Source: Gammaproteobacteria bacterium (GTDB taxonomy: Bacteria; Pseudomonadota; Gammaproteobacteria; Arenicellales; JAOTYS01). Taken from it: 8,784 bases of DNA. The DNA is taken from positions 1-8,784 of the forward strand of contig JAOTYS010000175.1 of assembly GCA_029861795.1 (NCBI GenBank), in the 5' to 3' direction. The translations under genes were made by a program, and so were the position numbers. A model generated the notes under the pieces. The model saw only the letters and a program-made list of their open reading frames with translations, was not told the origin of the DNA and did not search any database. Positions 2,251 to 8,784 of the stretch are shown here, in pieces (position 1 is the stretch's first letter; the number at the start of each line of letters is the position of its first letter).

Positions 2251-4026
2251 CTACCAGCAGAGCGCGAACGCGGGGAAAACCTCCCCCTTCCAGCCTCGCG
2301 GATCACACCCCGCTTCCAACACACCGGTGTGCGGGTCACGGCAAGCGGCGAGCAAATAACCTTCGGTCCAATCCGCTGCCACTTCTAAATCATGGCCGCG
2401 TCGTGTCAGCTCAGCACGAACGGATTCAACCACACGTGGTTCTATGCGAACACGATTGGCGATGCTGTCATGGGGTGCAAAGAACCCCGGAAAATGTTCG
2501 CTGGAAAACTTAGGCGCTTCGATTGCCTCTTGGATAGTCATGTTGAAGATCACTCGATTGAGCAAGAATTGAAGCATCCATTGGTCTTGCTGATCTCCGC
2601 CCATGCTACCAAAGACCATCCAGGGCCGTCCTTGATGAAAGGCCAAAGACGGGCTGATCGTCGTTCTTGGACGTTTGAACGGCGCCACGACATTGGGATG
2701 GTGATCCGGGGTCAGATAGAAAGTCATTAGTCGATTGCCGAGAGGAAAGCCTAATGAGGCTATCACCTCCGCAGACTTTATCCAGCCACCACTAGGGGTA
2801 AAGGCTGCCATATTGCCGTCGCAGTCGATTACGTCCACGTGCACGGTGCCGGGTCCCCAAGCGCCGCCAGCGAGACGGGCCTCAGGCGTAAGCAACGCCT
2901 GACCCATCTCGGGGTCTCCGGGTCTGAGCTCCGAACAAGCGTGCTCCGGATCGATGAGTTCTGCCCGCAACTTAGCGTAATCTTTGGATAGTAATTCCAC
3001 CAGCGGGACTGCGACCTGCTCGGGGTCACCGTAGTATTGTTCTCGGTCGGCAAAGGCGAGCTTTACCGCCTCTATCACCGTGTGCAAATAGTCCGATGAA
3101 TTATGACTCATGGCTTGCAAGTCGAACTGTTCGAGGATGGCGGCCGCTTGCAACAGCGCGGGTCCTTGATTCCACGGACCGCATTTGAAGATTTTCGACC
3201 TGTGGAATTTGATACAGGCCGGCTGTTCCAATCGCGTCTGAAAGCACTCGAGGTCGGAGCGACGCAAAAGGCCATCGTGGTCGCGCGAATAACGATCGAT
3301 CGTTGACGCCACATCGCCCCGGTAAAACCCATCCAATACCGCTTGCAGACCGCGTTGTCGATCACTTTTTTCTGGTCGTTCCAGATGGACTAAAGCATCA
3401 AACATCGACGCCAGCGCTGGGTTGTGCAAAACAGTGCCTTCTACCGGAACTTGTCCTGCCGGAAGGTAGAGATTCGCGCTGCCTGACCAATCTTGCTTAA
3501 ACTTTGCCGCCAGATCGCGTACACCAAAGTGTTCTTGCGCAATCAGTCCACGGTGCACCGGGAATCCTTCCCGCGCGAGTGTGAGTGCCGGGCCAACGAC
3601 TTGCGCAAAAGTCATGCGACCAAAATTCGACAGCGCGGTGAGCAATGCGCCAAATGCGGCGGGCACACCCGCGGCGAGGATGCCTTCATCCGGTAGATCA
3701 CTACATTCGCGTTCACGGTACACCCGCGGCGTGGCGAGTTCCGGTGCAGCGGTGTTGCCATTAACGCTGACCACATCACCACGCTCCACCAGATGGATTA
3801 ACATCGGGCATTCACCGCCGATGGTATGCATCTGCGGATTCACTACTCCCTCAACAAAGGTGGCCGCCACGGCGGCGTCCACGGCATTGCCTCCGGCCGT
3901 CAAGATGTCTTTGGCCGTCTGGGCAGACAGATAGTGCTGGCTGGTAACAGCCCCTCGGGTGCCCAATAGCCGTGGCAGATAAGTGTTTTTATCTGTGGCT
4001 CCATTACGAAATGCCCGTGTGCTCAT
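2251..4026 (-). CDS. Gamma-glutamyltransferase-fold Ntn hydrolase, cytoplasmic, altered acyl site
   Basis: 591 residues, full length for the family (E. coli Ggt is 580). The N-terminal half has GAVTSQHYLSAQTAKDILTAGGNAVDAAVAA and the small-subunit start is GPGTVHVDVIDCDGN. Thr394 aligns with the autoprocessing nucleophile Thr391 of E. coli Ggt, giving predicted chains of about 393 and 198 residues. SPSLAF (458-463) and FGSMGG (472-477, oxyanion glycines) are also kept. By eye, the residues that bind the gamma-glutamyl group are not: E. coli Arg114 aligns with Asn91, Asn411 with Gly414, Gln430 with Arg432, Asp433 with Thr435, and Ser462-Ser463 with Thr455-Thr456. No signal peptide is visible, unlike periplasmic Ggt. 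A cytoplasmic amidohydrolase/acylase is therefore more likely than glutathione cleavage; the oxamate amidohydrolase HpxW and cephalosporin acylases are known non-glutamyl members of this fold. The gene follows the SucCD-like genes. The start has TAGG five bases upstream. Confidence 0.85.
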   Translation of the reverse strand: MSTRAFRNGATDKNTYLPRLLGTRGAVTSQHYLSAQTAKDILTAGGNAVDAAVAATFVEGVVNPQMHTIGGECPMLIHLVERGDVVSVNGNTAAPELATPRVYRERECSDLPDEGILAAGVPAAFGALLTALSNFGRMTFAQVVGPALTLAREGFPVHRGLIAQEHFGVRDLAAKFKQDWSGSANLYLPAGQVPVEGTVLHNPALASMFDALVHLERPEKSDRQRGLQAVLDGFYRGDVASTIDRYSRDHDGLLRRSDLECFQTRLEQPACIKFHRSKIFKCGPWNQGPALLQAAAILEQFDLQAMSHNSSDYLHTVIEAVKLAFADREQYYGDPEQVAVPLVELLSKDYAKLRAELIDPEHACSELRPGDPEMGQALLTPEARLAGGAWGPGTVHVDVIDCDGNMAAFTPSGGWIKSAEVIASLGFPLGNRLMTFYLTPDHHPNVVAPFKRPRTTISPSLAFHQGRPWMVFGSMGGDQQDQWMLQFLLNRVIFNMTIQEAIEAPKFSSEHFPGFFAPHDSIANRVRIEPRVVESVRAELTRRGHDLEVAADWTEGYLLAACRDPHTGVLEAGCDPRGWKGEVFPAFALCW

Positions 4027-4208: not shown

Positions 4209-5087
4209 TTATCTGCGTGCTAAGGCCTCGGCCACCGTGGCTCCGATGGTGGCTACGGATTCTGCGATGATGACCCCTGCTCGTCGTAACGCTTCGATTT
4301 TTGTTTCAGCACCACCCTTGCCTCCCGCGATCACTGCGCCGGCGTGACCCATGCGCCGATCTGGTGGTGCATGACGCCCAGCCACATAGGCCACCACTGG
4401 TTTTTCTGAGGTTTGGGTGCTGAGATACTGTGCCGCTTGTTCCTCTTCGGTTCCGCCGATCTCACCTACAAGTAAGATGGCTTGAGTTTCGGGATCAGCC
4501 AAAAAAAGCTCAATGCTGTCAATGAAATTCATGCCGTGGATAGGGTCTGCGCCGATACCGATGAAAGTGGACTGACCTAGGCCCAGTGCCGTAGTTTGCA
4601 CCACCGCTTCGTAGCCCAGTGTACCTGAGCGCGACACAATACCAACCGTGCCACGTTTGTGGATCAGCCCAGGCATGATGCCGATCTTGCATTCCCCTGG
4701 CGCAATAACCCCCGGACAATTAGGTCCAATCAATCTGGTATTGCTATCGCTCAGCGCATCCTTGACTGTCACAATGTCTAGGGTCGGGATGCCCTCTGTG
4801 ATACAAACGACCAACGGAAGCTGCGCTTCAATGGCATCGAGTATTGCTTGGGCTGCGAATTCTGGCGGGACGTAGATAACACTAGCATCCGCTTGGGTTG
4901 CAGCAACCGCTTCAGCCACCGTATCAAAAACGGGTAGTTTCAAATGCTTAGTTCCGCCCTTGCCAGGAGTCACTCCAGCCACCATTTTTGTTCCATAGTC
5001 CATTGCCTGATCGGAATGAAACGTCCCTTGGTAGCCAGTAAATCCTTGGCAGATCACTCTGGTATCTGCATTGACAAGAACGGCCAT
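4209..5087 (-). CDS. Succinyl-CoA synthetase-like acid-CoA ligase, alpha subunit
   Basis: 292 residues, close to E. coli SucD (289). The N-terminal CoA-binding Rossmann domain shows [20 protein letters not shown] (14-33) and [10 protein letters not shown] (36-45). The middle has CITEGIP (95-101), GPNCPGVI (121-128) and SRSGTLGYE (152-160, Tyr159 at the substrate-contact position). The C-terminal ligase domain has GEIGG (208-212) and [16 protein letters not shown] (244-259), in which His248 is the phosphohistidine that carries phosphate between nucleotide and acid sites. It forms the enzyme with the beta subunit encoded just upstream: acid + CoA + NTP to acyl-CoA + NDP + phosphate. The start codon overlaps the beta stop by one base (TAATG), with GGGAGG nine bases before it, so translation is coupled. 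The gene is not beside 2-oxoglutarate dehydrogenase genes and is probably a specialised paralogue rather than the TCA-cycle sucD. Malate-CoA ligase (MtkB-like) is an alternative. Confidence 0.9.
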
Positions 5088-6259
5088 TAGCGTCTGCCTC
5101 CCGCCGCGTCGACGGCACGTGTCGCCGCGTCGGCTAGATCATCAGTGCTGATGAACTCTAGGCGTGAGTTTCGCAACAACATCATTGCGGCTTCGCGAGC
5201 GGTGCCGGCGAGGCGAATGATTAGTGGTACATTGATGCCAACATCTTGGGATGCGGTGATAATGCCTTCGGCAATAACATTGCAACGAGTGAAACCGCCG
5301 CCCACGGCGTTGACAAAAATCGCTCTGACATCGTCATCCTTAAGAATGAGTTTGAATGCCTCCGCCACCTGTGATCGAGTCGCCGTTGGCGGAAGGTCTA
5401 GGAAATTTGCGGGTTCACCGCCGTGGCGCTTGATCAAATCGATGGTTGCCAGGGCTAACCCTGCGCCGGTTACTACACAGCCAATGTGGCCGCCAAGTTT
5501 TATGTAATTGAAACCGTGGCGGGCGCGTTCTAGTCGATCCGGATCCTCTTCGGTGTCGTCACGAAGTTTTTCCAGCTCCGGGTGGCGAAACAACGCGTTG
5601 TCGTCAAAGCTCATCTTGACATCCAGCGGTAGTAGCTCATTGGAACCCGTGACCACCAGTGGATTGATTTCGATCAATGATGCATCCAGCTCAACAAATG
5701 TGTGATAGAGACTGGCAAGTAACTGAACTACGGTATTTTCATGTTGCCCAGTTAAGCCAAGGGCCTGGGCCACTTGTCGAGAGTGTTCGCTTCCCAAGCC
5801 GTCTGTGTGATTTATGAGCGTTTTGATGATTTTGTTCGGGGAGCTTTCCGCAACCCTTTCGATTTCCATGCCGCCAACGGTTGAAGCGATGATGGCCACT
5901 TGAGCGCTGTCTCTATCAACCAACATCGCTAGGTAAAGTTCGCGATCAATATCGCAGGCTTGTTCAACGTATACTTGGTTTACTTTGCGACCGGCGGGAC
6001 CAGTTTGGGGTGTCACTAGTTTCATCCCGATCAAGTCGGACGCGTGCTCACGAATGTTTTCCAGAGACTCGGCCGGTCGAATGCCGCCCGTTTTGCCACG
6101 GTCTCCAGCGTGAATTTGGGCCTTCACAACCCAGCGTGAACCACCGATCTTGGTGGCGGCTATCTCCGCCTTTTCCGCACTTTCCGCAACATGTCCTTTA
6201 GGAATTGTCACGCCATACCTGGCGAGGATTTGTTTGGCTTGATATTCGTGGATATTCAT
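5087..6259 (-). CDS. Succinyl-CoA synthetase-like acid-CoA ligase, beta subunit, altered acid site
   Basis: 390 residues, the family length, starting with the canonical [12 protein letters not shown]. The ATP-grasp residues are all present at E. coli SucC numbering: Lys46, Glu99, Glu107, Asn199 (EINPLV) and Asp213, though the usual GGRGK loop reads GDRGK at 52-56. The acid-binding end is unusual. The normally invariant Asn264 (VNGAGLA) is Thr264 (VTGAGLA). The GGIVRC loop that contacts succinate at 321-323 reads GGGFTRC, with one inserted residue. FLDVGGGAT reads FLDLPPTAT (286-294), and RLEGTN reads RLAGTA (349-354). This points to an ADP/GDP-forming ligase for an acid other than succinate. 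RLAGT and other stretches recall malate-CoA ligase beta (MtkA), but that enzyme is expected to keep Asn264 and GGG. No clear Shine-Dalgarno precedes the start at 6259. It is the first gene of the minus-strand group, divergent from tctC. Confidence 0.88.
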
Positions 6260-6325: not shown

Positions 6326-6346
6326 TTTGGTATATGGTATACCAAA
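6326..6346. promoter_or_regulatory. 21-base palindromic operator, GntR/FCD type, in the divergent region
   Basis: TTTGGTATA (6326-6334) and TATACCAAA (6338-6346) are perfect inverted copies around a 3-base centre. A TTGGTATACCAA-like half-palindrome (GGTATACC at 6336-6343) is typical of operators bound by GntR-family regulators of the FadR/FCD branch, many of which sense organic acids. It lies 67 bases from the beta-subunit start and 51 bases from the tctC start, so one regulator could control both directions. The regulator gene itself is not in the window. Confidence 0.65.
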
Positions 6347-6396
6347 CGTTTTTTCTAACAAAGTTTGATTCTCAAGCTGTAAACCTGGAGGGAGAG

Positions 6397-7380
6397 ATGA
6401 AGTCAATTCTGAGAAAGGCGTTATTGCTACCAGCAATATCTGTTTTCGCAATTTTTGCTGTTTTGTCCGTCCCGGCCCACGCGTGGGAACCCAAAAAGCC
6501 AGTTGAATTTATCATCATGGCAGGCACGGGTGGTGGTGCTGATCAAATGGCGCGGTTGATGCAGAGCATTATTCAGAAGAATAATCTCTCGTCGCAGCCG
6601 TTTATTCCGATCAACAAGCCGGGTGGATCCGGCGCCGAGGCACTTCGGTATCTTAAAGACAATGAAGGAAACGATCATGTGGTGATGATCACGCTGAATA
6701 GTTTTTACACCACGCCATTGTTGAATCCTGATCTTGGTGTAGATATCAGCACATTCACTCCTATCGGTCGCATGGCGCTTGATACATTCCTGCTGTGGGT
6801 GAACTCAGAGACCGACATCCAGTCCCTTGACGATTATGTCGTTGAGGTAAAAGCAAAAGGTAGGGACTGGAAGATGGGTGGAACCGGTGAAGGACAAGAG
6901 GATTCGTTGGTGACAGGAATGCTGCAAAACAAATTTGGATTTGAGGTCACCTATGTACCATTCCCTGGCGGTGGCACGGTAGCTAAAAACTTGATTGGCA
7001 AACACATCGATTCAACCGTTAACAATCCCTCTGAGCAGATGGGTTTCTTTGAGGCCGGCCAATCCCGTCCGTTAATGGTGTTGACGCCGGAACGGCTACC
7101 GCAATTCCCAGATGTGCCAACGTCGGCTGAAGTGGGTCACCCCGATCTGGTGTATTACATGCAACGCAGCATCAACGGCCCACCGGGGATGCCTGCCGAA
7201 GCGCAAGAATATTACATCAATCTATTCAAGCAGCTGTTTGATTCGGCCGAGTGGCAGGAGTTTTGCGCAAGCGACGGTATCTTTTGCGAAGAATGGCTGG
7301 CCGGGGATGAGCTGGCTCAATACCATGCCACCGAGAAGGCAAAGCACGAGGAGTTGCTAAAAGGAATGGGTAAAATCTAA
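6397..7380 (+). CDS. tctC: Tripartite tricarboxylate transporter solute-binding protein (TctC/Bug family)
   Basis: 327 residues from the ATG at 6397, chosen because GGAGGGAG lies just before it and a clean signal peptide follows: charged MKSILRK, a hydrophobic core, and AHA|W cleavage after residue 29. An in-frame ATG at 6334 would put 21 residues ahead of the signal peptide and lies inside the operator, so it is unlikely. The mature protein has the Bug/TctC landmarks in order: MAGTGGGADQMARLMQ (41-56), INKPGGSGAEAL (72-83), VPFPGGGTVAKNLIGKHID (187-205) and RLPQFPDVPTSAEVG (233-247). It captures an organic acid, typically a di- or tricarboxylate, in the periplasm and hands it to TctA/TctB. 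Its only two cysteines in the mature chain, Cys290 and Cys297, could form a disulfide. The substrate is unknown; the divergent acid-CoA ligase suggests an acid that is metabolised as its CoA ester. Confidence 0.92.
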   Translation: MKSILRKALLLPAISVFAIFAVLSVPAHAWEPKKPVEFIIMAGTGGGADQMARLMQSIIQKNNLSSQPFIPINKPGGSGAEALRYLKDNEGNDHVVMITLNSFYTTPLLNPDLGVDISTFTPIGRMALDTFLLWVNSETDIQSLDDYVVEVKAKGRDWKMGGTGEGQEDSLVTGMLQNKFGFEVTYVPFPGGGTVAKNLIGKHIDSTVNNPSEQMGFFEAGQSRPLMVLTPERLPQFPDVPTSAEVGHPDLVYYMQRSINGPPGMPAEAQEYYINLFKQLFDSAEWQEFCASDGIFCEEWLAGDELAQYHATEKAKHEELLKGMGKI

Positions 7381-7572: not shown

Positions 7573-8076
7573 ATGAAAGTTCGCGCCGCCGAGCTGATGA
7601 TGGCAGTGCTCATGGGGCTCCTCTCTATTTGGTTGATGTGGAAGAGCGCCGAACTTCCCATCGGATGGCTAGAGGGCCGAGGACCGGGTGGCGGTGCGTG
7701 GCCGTTTTGGTTAGCGGCGGTGATGTTGGGGTGTTGCGTCATTACTGTCGTGCGGTGGTTTATACGTAAGACGCCGGAATCTCGTTCTGATGCCGAGTAC
7801 ATGGATCGTACCACGCGGCGAATCAATTTCATTACCGTGGGTTCTCTTGTCGCGATGCTGGTGCTAACACACGTCATCGGTATGTATTTTGCGATGATGT
7901 TGTTTTTGTTGTTCTATATTCGTTTCATCGGTCGCCACTCATGGCTGCTGACCGGCGTACTGTCCTTGGGTCTCCCAGTCTTCACGTTTTTATTCTTCGA
8001 AGGTTTGTTGAAAATCATTTTACCGAAAGGTTATTCGGAACCACTTTTCTATCCGATCTACAGGCTCATTTTCTAA
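7573..8076 (+). CDS. tctB: Tripartite tricarboxylate transporter small membrane subunit (TctB family)
   Basis: 167 residues, typical for TctB. Hydrophobic segments lie at about 6-26, 43-64, 84-118 (long enough for two close helices) and 124-146, with a hydrophilic stretch at 65-83 between the second and third. GPGGGAWPFWLA (37-48) and ILPKG near the C terminus (149-153) match the family, where a Gly/Pro-rich segment leads into helix two and LPxG follows the last helix. TctB is the poorly conserved small partner of TctA; together they form the sodium- or proton-coupled inner-membrane carrier fed by TctC. The start is well supported by GGGGAGGAG at 7560-7568, four bases before the ATG. The gene follows tctC after a 192-base hairpin-rich gap and is separated from tctA by 21 bases. 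Confidence 0.9.
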   Translation: MKVRAAELMMAVLMGLLSIWLMWKSAELPIGWLEGRGPGGGAWPFWLAAVMLGCCVITVVRWFIRKTPESRSDAEYMDRTTRRINFITVGSLVAMLVLTHVIGMYFAMMLFLLFYIRFIGRHSWLLTGVLSLGLPVFTFLFFEGLLKIILPKGYSEPLFYPIYRLIF

Positions 8077-8097: not shown

Positions 8098-8784
8098 ATG
8101 GAGATTCTTGATCCGCTGATGCAGGGTTTTGCAACGGCCCTGTCCCCGCAAAACATTATGCTCATGATGCTGGGGTGCATCATTGGACTTTTCGTAGGCG
8201 CCATGCCCGGTCTTGGTTCCGTCAACGGTGTTGCTATCTTACTCCCTGTTACGTTTTTGGTACCGCCGACCGGTGCAATTATCTTCCTCGCAGCGGTCTA
8301 CTACGGTGCCATGTACGGCGGTGCCATAAGTTCCATCATGTTGGGTATACCGGGTGCATCCACTGCGGTAGCCACTGTATTTGATGGCCGACCATTAGCC
8401 ATGCAGGGCAAAGCGGACTTCGCACTGGTGGCCGCAGCGGTCGGGTCTTTCGTTGGTGGTACGATTTCGGTCATTCTGTTCACATTGTTCGCCCCTCCGC
8501 TGGCTGATTTTGCGCTCAAGTTTGGTCCTCCGGAAGAGTTTGCATTGATGATGTTGGCATTCGCGACCTTTATCGGTTTGGGCGGCGACGACATCCCGAA
8601 GACGGTTTTTTCTATTGCGATCGGTTTAGTACTCGCGGCGGTCGGATTGGACGAAGTATCGGGTAAACCGCGTCTAATCTTTTTCGACCTTCCGGGTTTT
8701 TTCCACGGCGTTAATTTTCTGGTACTAGCCATCGGCATCTATGGCATCGGCGAGATATTGTGGACCTTAAAAACCAGCAAGGGT
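8098..8784 (+). CDS. tctA: Tripartite tricarboxylate transporter large membrane subunit (TctA), 5' part
   Basis: An open frame from ATG 8098 to the window end without a stop: 229 residues of a protein that normally has about 500. After the N-terminal MEILDPLMQGFATALSPQNI come the TctA signatures: LFVGAMPGLGSVNGVAILLP (31-50), VYYGAMYGGAISSIMLGIPG (67-86) and FDGRPLA (95-101). These Gly/Pro-rich loops between helices are the most conserved part of the family and are thought to line the substrate and ion path. The rest of the visible part is a series of hydrophobic helices. TctA is the large transport subunit of the secondary carrier. Only a weak TAAGAG lies before the start, so its translation may depend on that of tctB, 21 bases upstream. 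The end of the gene and whatever follows it lie outside the window. Confidence 0.92.
   Translation, partial: MEILDPLMQGFATALSPQNIMLMMLGCIIGLFVGAMPGLGSVNGVAILLPVTFLVPPTGAIIFLAAVYYGAMYGGAISSIMLGIPGASTAVATVFDGRPLAMQGKADFALVAAAVGSFVGGTISVILFTLFAPPLADFALKFGPPEEFALMMLAFATFIGLGGDDIPKTVFSIAIGLVLAAVGLDEVSGKPRLIFFDLPGFFHGVNFLVLAIGIYGIGEILWTLKTSKG

What the first reader, a model, noticed from the sequence alone, without database searches (positions are those of the whole stretch)
5087..6259. SucC-like beta subunit whose acid-binding positions are rewritten
Seen: the nucleotide and metal residues keep exact SucC numbering (Lys46, Glu99, Glu107, Asn199, Asp213). All the nearby acid-side motifs differ: Asn264 to Thr, GGIVRC to GGGFTRC with one inserted residue, DVGGGAT to DLPPTAT, and LEGTN to LAGTA. 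Known: in E. coli SucC, positions 264 and 321-323 contact the substrate together with the alpha subunit. Inference: a working NDP-forming acyl-CoA synthetase with a new acid specificity, possibly an undescribed subclass related to but distinct from malate-CoA ligase.
Basis: partly seen in the sequence, partly recalled or inferred. Interest (0 to 1): 0.72.

Follow-up and report, generated by a model that had tools for sequence, protein, structure and literature searches.

The report
SucC-like ligase with altered acid pocket
This is a two-subunit enzyme resembling the one that makes succinyl-CoA in the citric acid cycle, but its acid-holding pocket is rebuilt and it sits beside a dedicated acid importer, so it probably activates a different small acid, perhaps oxalate.

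Summary
Against E. coli SucC the ATP-side residues K46, E99, E107, N199, D213 are kept; N264 is T, DVGGGAT is DLPPTAT, NIFGGIVRC is [10 protein letters not shown] (one residue longer). Fourteen sequences share this set, two further groups (5 and 6) part of it. Four +1-loop plasmid relatives all lie in oxalate-degradation clusters. The window's transporter is closest, among plasmids, to the one in one of those clusters (TctC 59%, TctA 75%; next listed TctC 43%), and the alpha subunit shares rare histidines with the oxalate-linked alphas. I conclude: a working NDP-forming acid-CoA ligase of an unnamed +1-loop subclass, probably not for succinate, fed by the divergent transporter. The acid is unproven: oxalate or a close C2-C3 diacid leads; a hydroxydiacid or sulfoacetate remains open. 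No oxc or frc lies in the window, the query differs from the oxalate-linked pairs in several acid-site residues, and the rest of the contig could not be read.

The parts
5087..6259 (-). SucC-like beta subunit, 390 aa; ATP-grasp_2 + Ligase_CoA domains; +1-loop type acid site
   Evidence: AlphaFold2 model mean pLDDT 88.7, pTM 0.66, closest folds SCS beta chains
5378..5398 (-). codons of DLPPTAT (residues 288-294), in place of DVGGGAT
5282..5311 (-). codons of [10 protein letters not shown] (residues 317-326), acid loop with one extra residue
4209..5087 (-). SucD-like alpha subunit, 292 aa, with GHAG phosphohistidine and GEIGG; overlaps beta stop by one base (TAATG)
6334..7380 (+). TctC solute receptor of a tripartite tricarboxylate transporter; likely true start 6397 (GGAGGG upstream, signal-peptide-like start follows)
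7573..8076 (+). TctB small membrane subunit
8098..8784 (+). TctA large membrane subunit, runs off the window end
6326..6346 (.). inverted repeat with perfect 9-base arms, TTTGGTATA-TGG-TATACCAAA, in the 137-base divergent intergenic region; operator-like
   Evidence: role inferred
2251..4026 (-). gamma-glutamyltransferase-family Ntn hydrolase, 182 bases downstream of alpha on the same strand; possible but unproven member of the same operon

Best explanation
The beta-alpha pair is a working NDP-forming acid-CoA ligase: ATP (or GTP) phosphorylates the alpha histidine through the ATP-grasp domain, the phosphate passes to an acid held between the two subunits, and CoA displaces it. It belongs to a '+1-loop' lineage in which the glycine cradle DVGGGAT is replaced by LPPx and the opposite loop has gained a residue (GG to GGG) and a threonine, so the acid is held differently and succinate is probably not the main substrate. 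The acid is brought in by the divergently transcribed tripartite transporter. My leading guess for the acid is oxalate or a close C2-C3 diacid (oxalate itself about 0.3). Shown: gene anatomy, motif changes, separate lineage among sampled rows, kept catalytic residues, transporter kinship. Inferred: catalysis, acid identity, shared regulation, and the mechanism itself, which is that of the family (established knowledge of succinyl-CoA synthetase).
For: Catalytic residues kept in beta and alpha. Loop 317-325 is 10 long in 29 of 29 +1-loop rows and 9 long in 36 of 36 ordinary SucC plus MtkA rows. With motif columns dropped the two sets still separate, 97/93, in 97% of 200 bootstrap trees. Position 323 is V or M in 31 of 32 ordinary rows, T in 25 of 25 Q, G2 and G3 rows, N in 4 of 4 MtkA rows and N in the 3-sulfopropionate ligase HpfY (PMC11489063, passages), i.e. 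polar in two known non-succinate ligases. Oxalate link: the 4 oxalate-cluster betas are +1-loop, with oxc and/or frc in the same stretch in 4 of 4; window TctC/TctB/TctA match those of the La6 oxalate island at 59/50/75%, next listed plasmid TctC hit 43%; alpha H184 is shared with 4 of 4, E214 with 3 of 4 and H239 with 3 of 4 oxalate-linked alphas and each with 0 of 4 MtkB.
Against: No oxc, frc, oxalyl-CoA reductase or other CoA-ester consumer among the 9 window proteins scanned. Query beta is 34-41% identical to the 4 oxalate-linked betas but 41-57% to the 32 ordinary rows. The oxalate-linked alphas lose the acid-contact tyrosine (SLTSE) while the query keeps Y; the query alpha shares G158 with 4 of 4 MtkB and 0 of 4 oxalate-linked alphas. 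Over all 31 unusual alpha sites the excess is small: residues matching at least 3 of 4 rows number 5 for the oxalate group and 4 for MtkB. The query keeps E107, the oxalate group does not. One ordinary row (Chloroflexi L009) has T at 323 too. In L005 and L011 the +1-loop pair is about 4 and 12 kb from oxc; only in the two Phyllobacterium does it adjoin frc. Oxalate specificity of those pairs is itself inferred from position, and such clusters also hold ordinary SucCD. Long branches and an unrooted tree weaken the single-lineage claim.
Confidence: 0.6

Rival explanations
1. The ligase activates a hydroxy-dicarboxylate (malate, citramalate, tartronate, tartrate or similar), whose CoA ester is then cut by a CoA ester lyase; the gamma-glutamyltransferase-family hydrolase releases that acid from an amide precursor.
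For: Alpha G158 (SGTLGYE) is shared with 4 of 4 MtkB. The closest listed plasmid relatives of the window's hydrolase (58% and 57%, two Skermanella) sit near a CoA ester lyase (in L027 RipC/CitE-like, below both cut-offs) and TTT and, in L028, TRAP transporter genes.
Against: Beta lacks the MtkA signature NIFAGINRC and lies outside the MtkA clade; malate-ligase model NF010647 scores 472.5 against a cut-off of 604. No lyase among the 9 window proteins scanned; the two Skermanella stretches have no annotated SucCD, and their TctA is only about 31% identical to the window's.
Confidence: 0.25
2. It is a sulfoacetate-CoA ligase of SauCD kind, with the transporter as SauXYZ.
For: SauCD is an ADP-forming CoA ligase, and the sau clusters reported from Arctic sponge symbionts are associated with a TTT (PMC12625764 section 17 and passages; PMC12890257 passages).
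Against: No sulfoacetaldehyde dehydrogenase (SauS) among the 9 window proteins scanned. SauC sequences could not be obtained, so motifs were not compared. The characterised sulfonate ligase HpfYZ has GIN and His for Tyr; the query has GFT and Tyr. The TTT is closest, among plasmids, to one in an oxalate island.
Confidence: 0.12
3. It is an ordinary, diverged succinyl-CoA synthetase.
For: Passes the NCBIfam succinate-ligase model NF001913 (489.8 bits, cut-off 370); fold and catalytic residues kept.
Against: Acid-side motifs replaced together in 14 relatives; lineage separate from sampled SucC; neighbours are an importer, not TCA genes.
Confidence: 0.1

Closest known systems
Succinyl-CoA synthetase SucCD (ADP-forming)
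   Same: Domains, catalytic residues, beta-alpha gene order, fold (Foldseek ranks 1-24 are SCS beta chains, E 1.6e-52 to 9.0e-38)
   Different: N264, GGG cradle and loop length changed; separate lineage among sampled rows
Malate-CoA ligase MtkAB
   Same: Polar residue in the acid loop; alpha G158
   Different: MtkA keeps N264, GGG and the 9-residue loop NIFAGINRC; falls with ordinary SucC
Oxalate-cluster SucCD-like pairs (Paracoccus alcaliphilus, Paracoccaceae La6, two Phyllobacterium)
   Same: +1 loop, loss of G291, alpha H184 (4 of 4) and H239 (3 of 4); the La6 island carries the related transporter
   Different: RTT instead of LPP, N264 kept, E107 lost, alpha Tyr lost; 34-41% identity in beta
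Sulfonate-CoA ligases SauCD, SqwKL, HpfYZ
   Same: ADP-forming ligases with non-succinate acids, HpfYZ a SucCD homologue; SauCD is reported with a TTT
   Different: HpfYZ signature GIN plus His is absent here; SauC/SqwK sequences not compared
ATP-citrate lyase and citryl-CoA synthetase
   Same: Same superfamily; by eye, a Phe-Thr pair ends the acid loop in human ACLY too (IANFTN)
   Different: Weaker fold and sequence match (TMq 0.54-0.68, 16-24% identity, ranks 25 and 35-50 without the Blastocystis fragments)

Membership tests
Succinyl-CoA synthetase (SucCD) | ATP-grasp_2 and Ligase_CoA in beta; CoA_binding and Ligase_CoA with phosphohistidine in alpha | tested here: met
Succinyl-CoA synthetase (SucCD) | ordinary acid site: N264, DVGGGAT, 9-residue NIFGG loop | tested here: not met
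   T264, DLPPTAT, 10-residue loop
Succinyl-CoA synthetase (SucCD) | falls inside the ordinary SucC clade | tested here: not met
   motif columns dropped, 97/93; sampled rows only, unrooted
Succinyl-CoA synthetase (SucCD) | activity with succinate | not testable with these tools
   needs assay
Malate-CoA ligase (MtkAB) | NCBIfam NF010647 cut-off 604 | tested here: not met
   472.5 bits
Malate-CoA ligase (MtkAB) | NIFAGINRC loop and place in the MtkA clade | tested here: not met
   4 MtkA rows
Oxalate-cluster +1-loop pairs | 10-residue GGG loop and loss of G291 | tested here: met
Oxalate-cluster +1-loop pairs | RTT motif and loss of alpha Tyr | tested here: not met
Oxalate-cluster +1-loop pairs | oxc and/or frc nearby | tested here: inconclusive
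   none among the 9 window proteins scanned; rest of the 124,621-base contig not readable
SauCD sulfoacetate-CoA ligase | neighbouring TTT | tested here: met
SauCD sulfoacetate-CoA ligase | neighbouring SauS dehydrogenase | tested here: inconclusive
   none among the 9 window proteins scanned; contig beyond not readable
SauCD sulfoacetate-CoA ligase | sequence kinship to SauC | not tested
   no SauC sequence in hand; primary papers not held
HpfYZ 3-sulfopropionate-CoA ligase | GIN loop and His in place of alpha Tyr (PMC11489063) | tested here: not met
   GFT and Tyr159

The most novel reading that the evidence does not exclude
The +1-loop proteins are a distinct subclass of NDP-forming acid-CoA ligases in which the acid-holding glycine cradle has moved from the DVGGGAT loop to the opposite GGG loop, and its members, this one included, are reversible ATP-linked oxalate (or oxalate-like diacid)-CoA ligases served by a dedicated tripartite transporter. 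That would be a way to activate oxalate without a CoA transferase or an AMP-forming ligase.
Probability: 0.27. Interest if true: 0.72.

Novelty: new variant of a known kind. Interest (0 to 1): 0.5.

Why it matters
NCBIfam's succinate-ligase models accept this protein above cut-off, so a probably different subclass is being folded into the TCA cycle in annotation. Its motif pattern gives a simple test (loop length 9 or 10, GGG or not) to separate them. If the acid is oxalate, it adds an ATP-conserving entry to oxalate metabolism and a transporter family for it. In the held library I saw no paper that shows a SucCD-type oxalate ligase or a TTT for oxalate, judging from the listed parts of the searches (20 of 229, 12 of 14, 12 of 235 papers listed) and passages of two: a 2026 survey of oxalate enzymes has neither 'tripartite' nor 'CoA ligase' in its main text (PMC12927642), and a Cupriavidus genome paper only names oxalate among possible ligands of Bug/TTT receptors (PMC2864759).

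Tried and rejected
Exact-motif scan of one genome for each of 84,980 species for NA[VI]GGGxT[RS]C: one hit, L001, an off-frame match antisense to a long ORF that by eye looks like a molybdenum hydroxylase; none in viral contigs. The pattern covers 11 of the 14 Q motifs and none of G2, G3 or the oxalate group, so the scan shows rarity of Q, not absence. Viral-contig search with the Q profile gave 3 SucC-like loci of at most 50% identity, not pursued. Phage search with alpha gave 5 records below 60%.

Idea that the acid loop is citrate-like (Phe-Thr as in ATP-citrate lyase): only a local resemblance seen by eye; fold and sequence match is weaker than to SCS.

Oxamate amidohydrolase reading of the gamma-glutamyltransferase-family gene (link HpxW = 5hft is recalled): its best structure match is 6j3a (E 2e-106), 5hft chain A only 4e-22; not supported, not excluded.

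Operator search: for TTGGTATACCAA-like sites in 8 regions of 6 plasmid loci with oxalate clusters, 5 of 8 scored as chance would (fraction of shuffles as good 0.155-0.795) and 3 better (L005 0.01, L011 0.025 and 0.005); kept only as a weak hint. Sigma-70 and terminator scans were at chance level.

Structure models: beta good (mean pLDDT 88.7), alpha poor around the active loops (72.2; under 50 at 122-141, 180-184, 244-257), so no pocket geometry is claimed. The pair could not be modelled together.

Trees: 65 rows chosen by me from 204 beta hits plus plasmid, E. coli and one Chloroflexi sequence. The quick tree without motif columns keeps the +1-loop/ordinary split (99) but does not join Q and G2; the careful one does (94/94). 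Only the best 120 of about 8,000 scored hits are listed per search, so group sizes are lower bounds. In one search the profile was built from 9 of the 14 Q members.

Full report
OBSERVATION. The stretch 5087-6259 encodes, on the minus strand, a 390-residue SucC-like protein. Pfam finds ATP-grasp_2 and Ligase_CoA; NCBIfam names it succinate-CoA ligase beta above cut-off (489.8 against 370) and scores it below the cut-off for malate-CoA ligase (472.5 against 604). The alpha gene follows at 4209-5087, sharing one base with the beta stop (TAATG), and keeps the phosphohistidine motif GHAG and GEIGG. Against E. coli SucC, K46, E99, E107, N199 and D213 are identical, N264 is T, LDVGGGAT is LDLPPTAT, and NIFGGIVRC is [10 protein letters not shown].

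IS IT SHARED. Of 204 beta sequences gathered in two searches (the best 120 of each), 25 have the longer loop and 179 the ordinary one. The 25 fall in three sets: Q (14, with this protein: T264, LPP, N[AV][VL]GGGxTRC), G2 (5: T264, LPP, NAVGGGLTDC) and G3 (6: N264, VPP, NV[VI]GGGITRC, EGTN kept). Identity to the query within Q is 54-83%. Motifs conserved at such divergence imply a maintained function (inference). Q looks rare: an exact scan of one genome for each of 84,980 species, with a pattern that covers 11 of the 14 Q motifs, returned one off-frame chance match.

THE OXALATE-LINKED BRANCH. Plasmid searches brought in 4 further longer-loop beta subunits: Paracoccus alcaliphilus L005, Paracoccaceae bacterium La6 L011, and two Phyllobacterium, L012 and L013 (motif RTT, NVHGGGM[TQ]). 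The 4 are the only hits above 40.8% identity among the 25 of 103 records listed; the other 78 were not listed. All 4 have oxc and/or frc in the fetched stretch: oxc and frc in L005 and L011 (about 4 and 12 kb from the longer-loop pair), frc adjoining the pair in L012 and L013, there with a thiamine enzyme beside frc (oxc-like by position, my inference) and oxlT. Ordinary SucCD genes also lie in these or similar clusters (L003, L005, L008, L011, L013), so position alone does not give the acid. The two Phyllobacterium are close relatives, so this is about three independent cases.

TREE. A careful IQ-TREE of 65 beta subunits keeps G2, G3, the oxalate group (OX) and MtkA each as one side of a branch; Q alone is not, because G2 nests in it. 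Ordinary SucC plus MtkA is one side at 100/98; Q+G2+G3 is weaker (86/69). After dropping all acid-motif columns and the ATP-grasp loop insert (307 columns left), the 29 longer-loop rows and the 36 ordinary plus MtkA rows are still the two sides of one branch (97/93; 97% of 200 bootstrap trees; 99 in the quick tree). In one search Q plus G2 are one side at 94/94; in the quick tree they are not. The tree is unrooted, the OX rows and the Chloroflexi row have long branches, and archaeal SCS, SauC and SqwK are not in it.

WHAT THE CHANGES MEAN. A published analysis of HpfYZ against the succinate-bound structure says that the far carboxylate of succinate is held by an alpha tyrosine and backbone amides of the GIV motif, and that a conserved beta glycine (HpfY G280) helps bind phosphate, Mg or the near carboxylate (PMC11489063, passages read; the structure paper itself is not held). 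By numbering offset that glycine corresponds to E. coli G291, assuming no indel between (my inference). G291 is kept in 36 of 36 ordinary plus MtkA rows and is lost in 29 of 29 longer-loop rows (Pro in 25 of Q, G2, G3; Thr in 4 of OX), while the opposite loop has gained a residue. I read this as one coordinated rebuilding: the lost amide is replaced by the added GGG turn. The residue equivalent to V323 is T in 25 of 25 Q, G2 and G3 rows, T or Q in OX, N in MtkA and N in HpfY: polar in the known non-succinate ligases; against this, one of 32 ordinary rows (Chloroflexi L009) also has T. The alpha subunit departs from 31 of 195 positions that are at least 90% conserved among 118 ordinary-like alphas. 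Of these, H184 matches 4 of 4 OX alphas, E214 3 of 4 and H239 3 of 4, none matching MtkB; G158 matches 4 of 4 MtkB and 0 of 4 OX. The one other longer-loop partner alpha in hand, P0206, also has H184, E214 and H239 and has A at 158 (it and beta P0003 are both on a contig of 13,453 bases). Over the 31 sites, 12 match at least one OX row and 8 at least one MtkB row, 5 and 4 match three or more, so the general excess is small and the case rests on the few positions near the active-site motifs. The alpha tyrosine is kept in the query and lost in OX.

TRANSPORTER. TctC, TctB and TctA lie divergently. TctC probably starts at 6397, leaving a 137-base intergenic region with an inverted repeat of perfect 9-base arms. 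Among 776 plasmid records with a TctC match, the best is La6 at 59%, the next listed 43%; La6 TctB and TctA match at 50% and 75% (TctA over the 229 residues in the window). La6 TctA's own next listed plasmid matches are about 46%. The La6 transporter directly follows oxc, frc, fmt-like, fhs and usp genes on the same strand, about 19 kb from a longer-loop SucCD. So the window's transporter and its ligase type both point to that island.

GAMMA-GLUTAMYLTRANSFERASE-FAMILY GENE. It keeps a T-x-H nucleophile like 6j3a (Thr394; that this Thr is the nucleophile is inferred from the alignment and from 6j3i, which reads Ala there). In the alignment, the E. coli stretches NNQMDD and RPLSSMSP read GNRLMT and RPRTTISP here; that these hold the glutamyl group is recalled. 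So it is unlikely to be a true gamma-glutamyl enzyme. Its nearest listed plasmid relatives (57-58%) stand with a CoA ester lyase (the L027 one RipC/CitE-like, below cut-offs), which supports the hydroxydiacid rival.

VERDICT. A conserved, unnamed subclass of SucCD-type ligases; the acid is probably not succinate. Best single guess oxalate or a close C2-C3 diacid (oxalate about 0.3), then hydroxydiacids, then sulfoacetate. I saw no experiment on a longer-loop member in the listings or in the passages read of five papers (PMC12890257, PMC12625764, PMC11489063, PMC12927642, PMC2864759); none of these searches could ask for the loop itself.

Noticed in passing
window 2251-4026 (-): Gamma-glutamyltransferase-family protein without the usual glutamyl-binding residues (their role recalled); relatives at 57-58% in two Skermanella lie near a CoA ester lyase, a fumarylacetoacetate hydrolase-family gene, TTT (and TRAP in one) and TauE/SafE genes.
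   Followed up: partly
window 6326-6346: Inverted repeat TTTGGTATA TGG TATACCAAA between the divergent ligase and transporter genes, GntR-operator-like (label recalled).
   Followed up: partly
L003 8001-9200, L005 8001-9200, L008 8001-9200, L011 19814-21082, L013 2863-4062: Ordinary SucC with a 9-10 residue insert in the ATP-grasp loop sits in or near oxalate clusters with its SucD; the insert also occurs in the TCA-cluster SucC of L006, so it is not oxalate-specific.
   Followed up: partly
L003 5768-7915, L005 14669-16846, L012 120-2246, L013 4200-6326: An 'acetate--CoA ligase family' gene, another NDP-forming type, recurs in 4 oxalate clusters.
   Followed up: no
L011 29735-30718: TctC receptor annotated as 'Argininosuccinate lyase' in CP031587.1; apparent misannotation.
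   Followed up: yes
OX beta subunits (L005, L011, L012, L013): They lack E107 (Ser in 3, Asn in 1), which is kept in the other 61 rows of the tree set.
   Followed up: no
L001 2737-2766: Chance antisense match to the loop pattern inside a long ORF that looks by eye like a molybdenum hydroxylase.
   Followed up: yes
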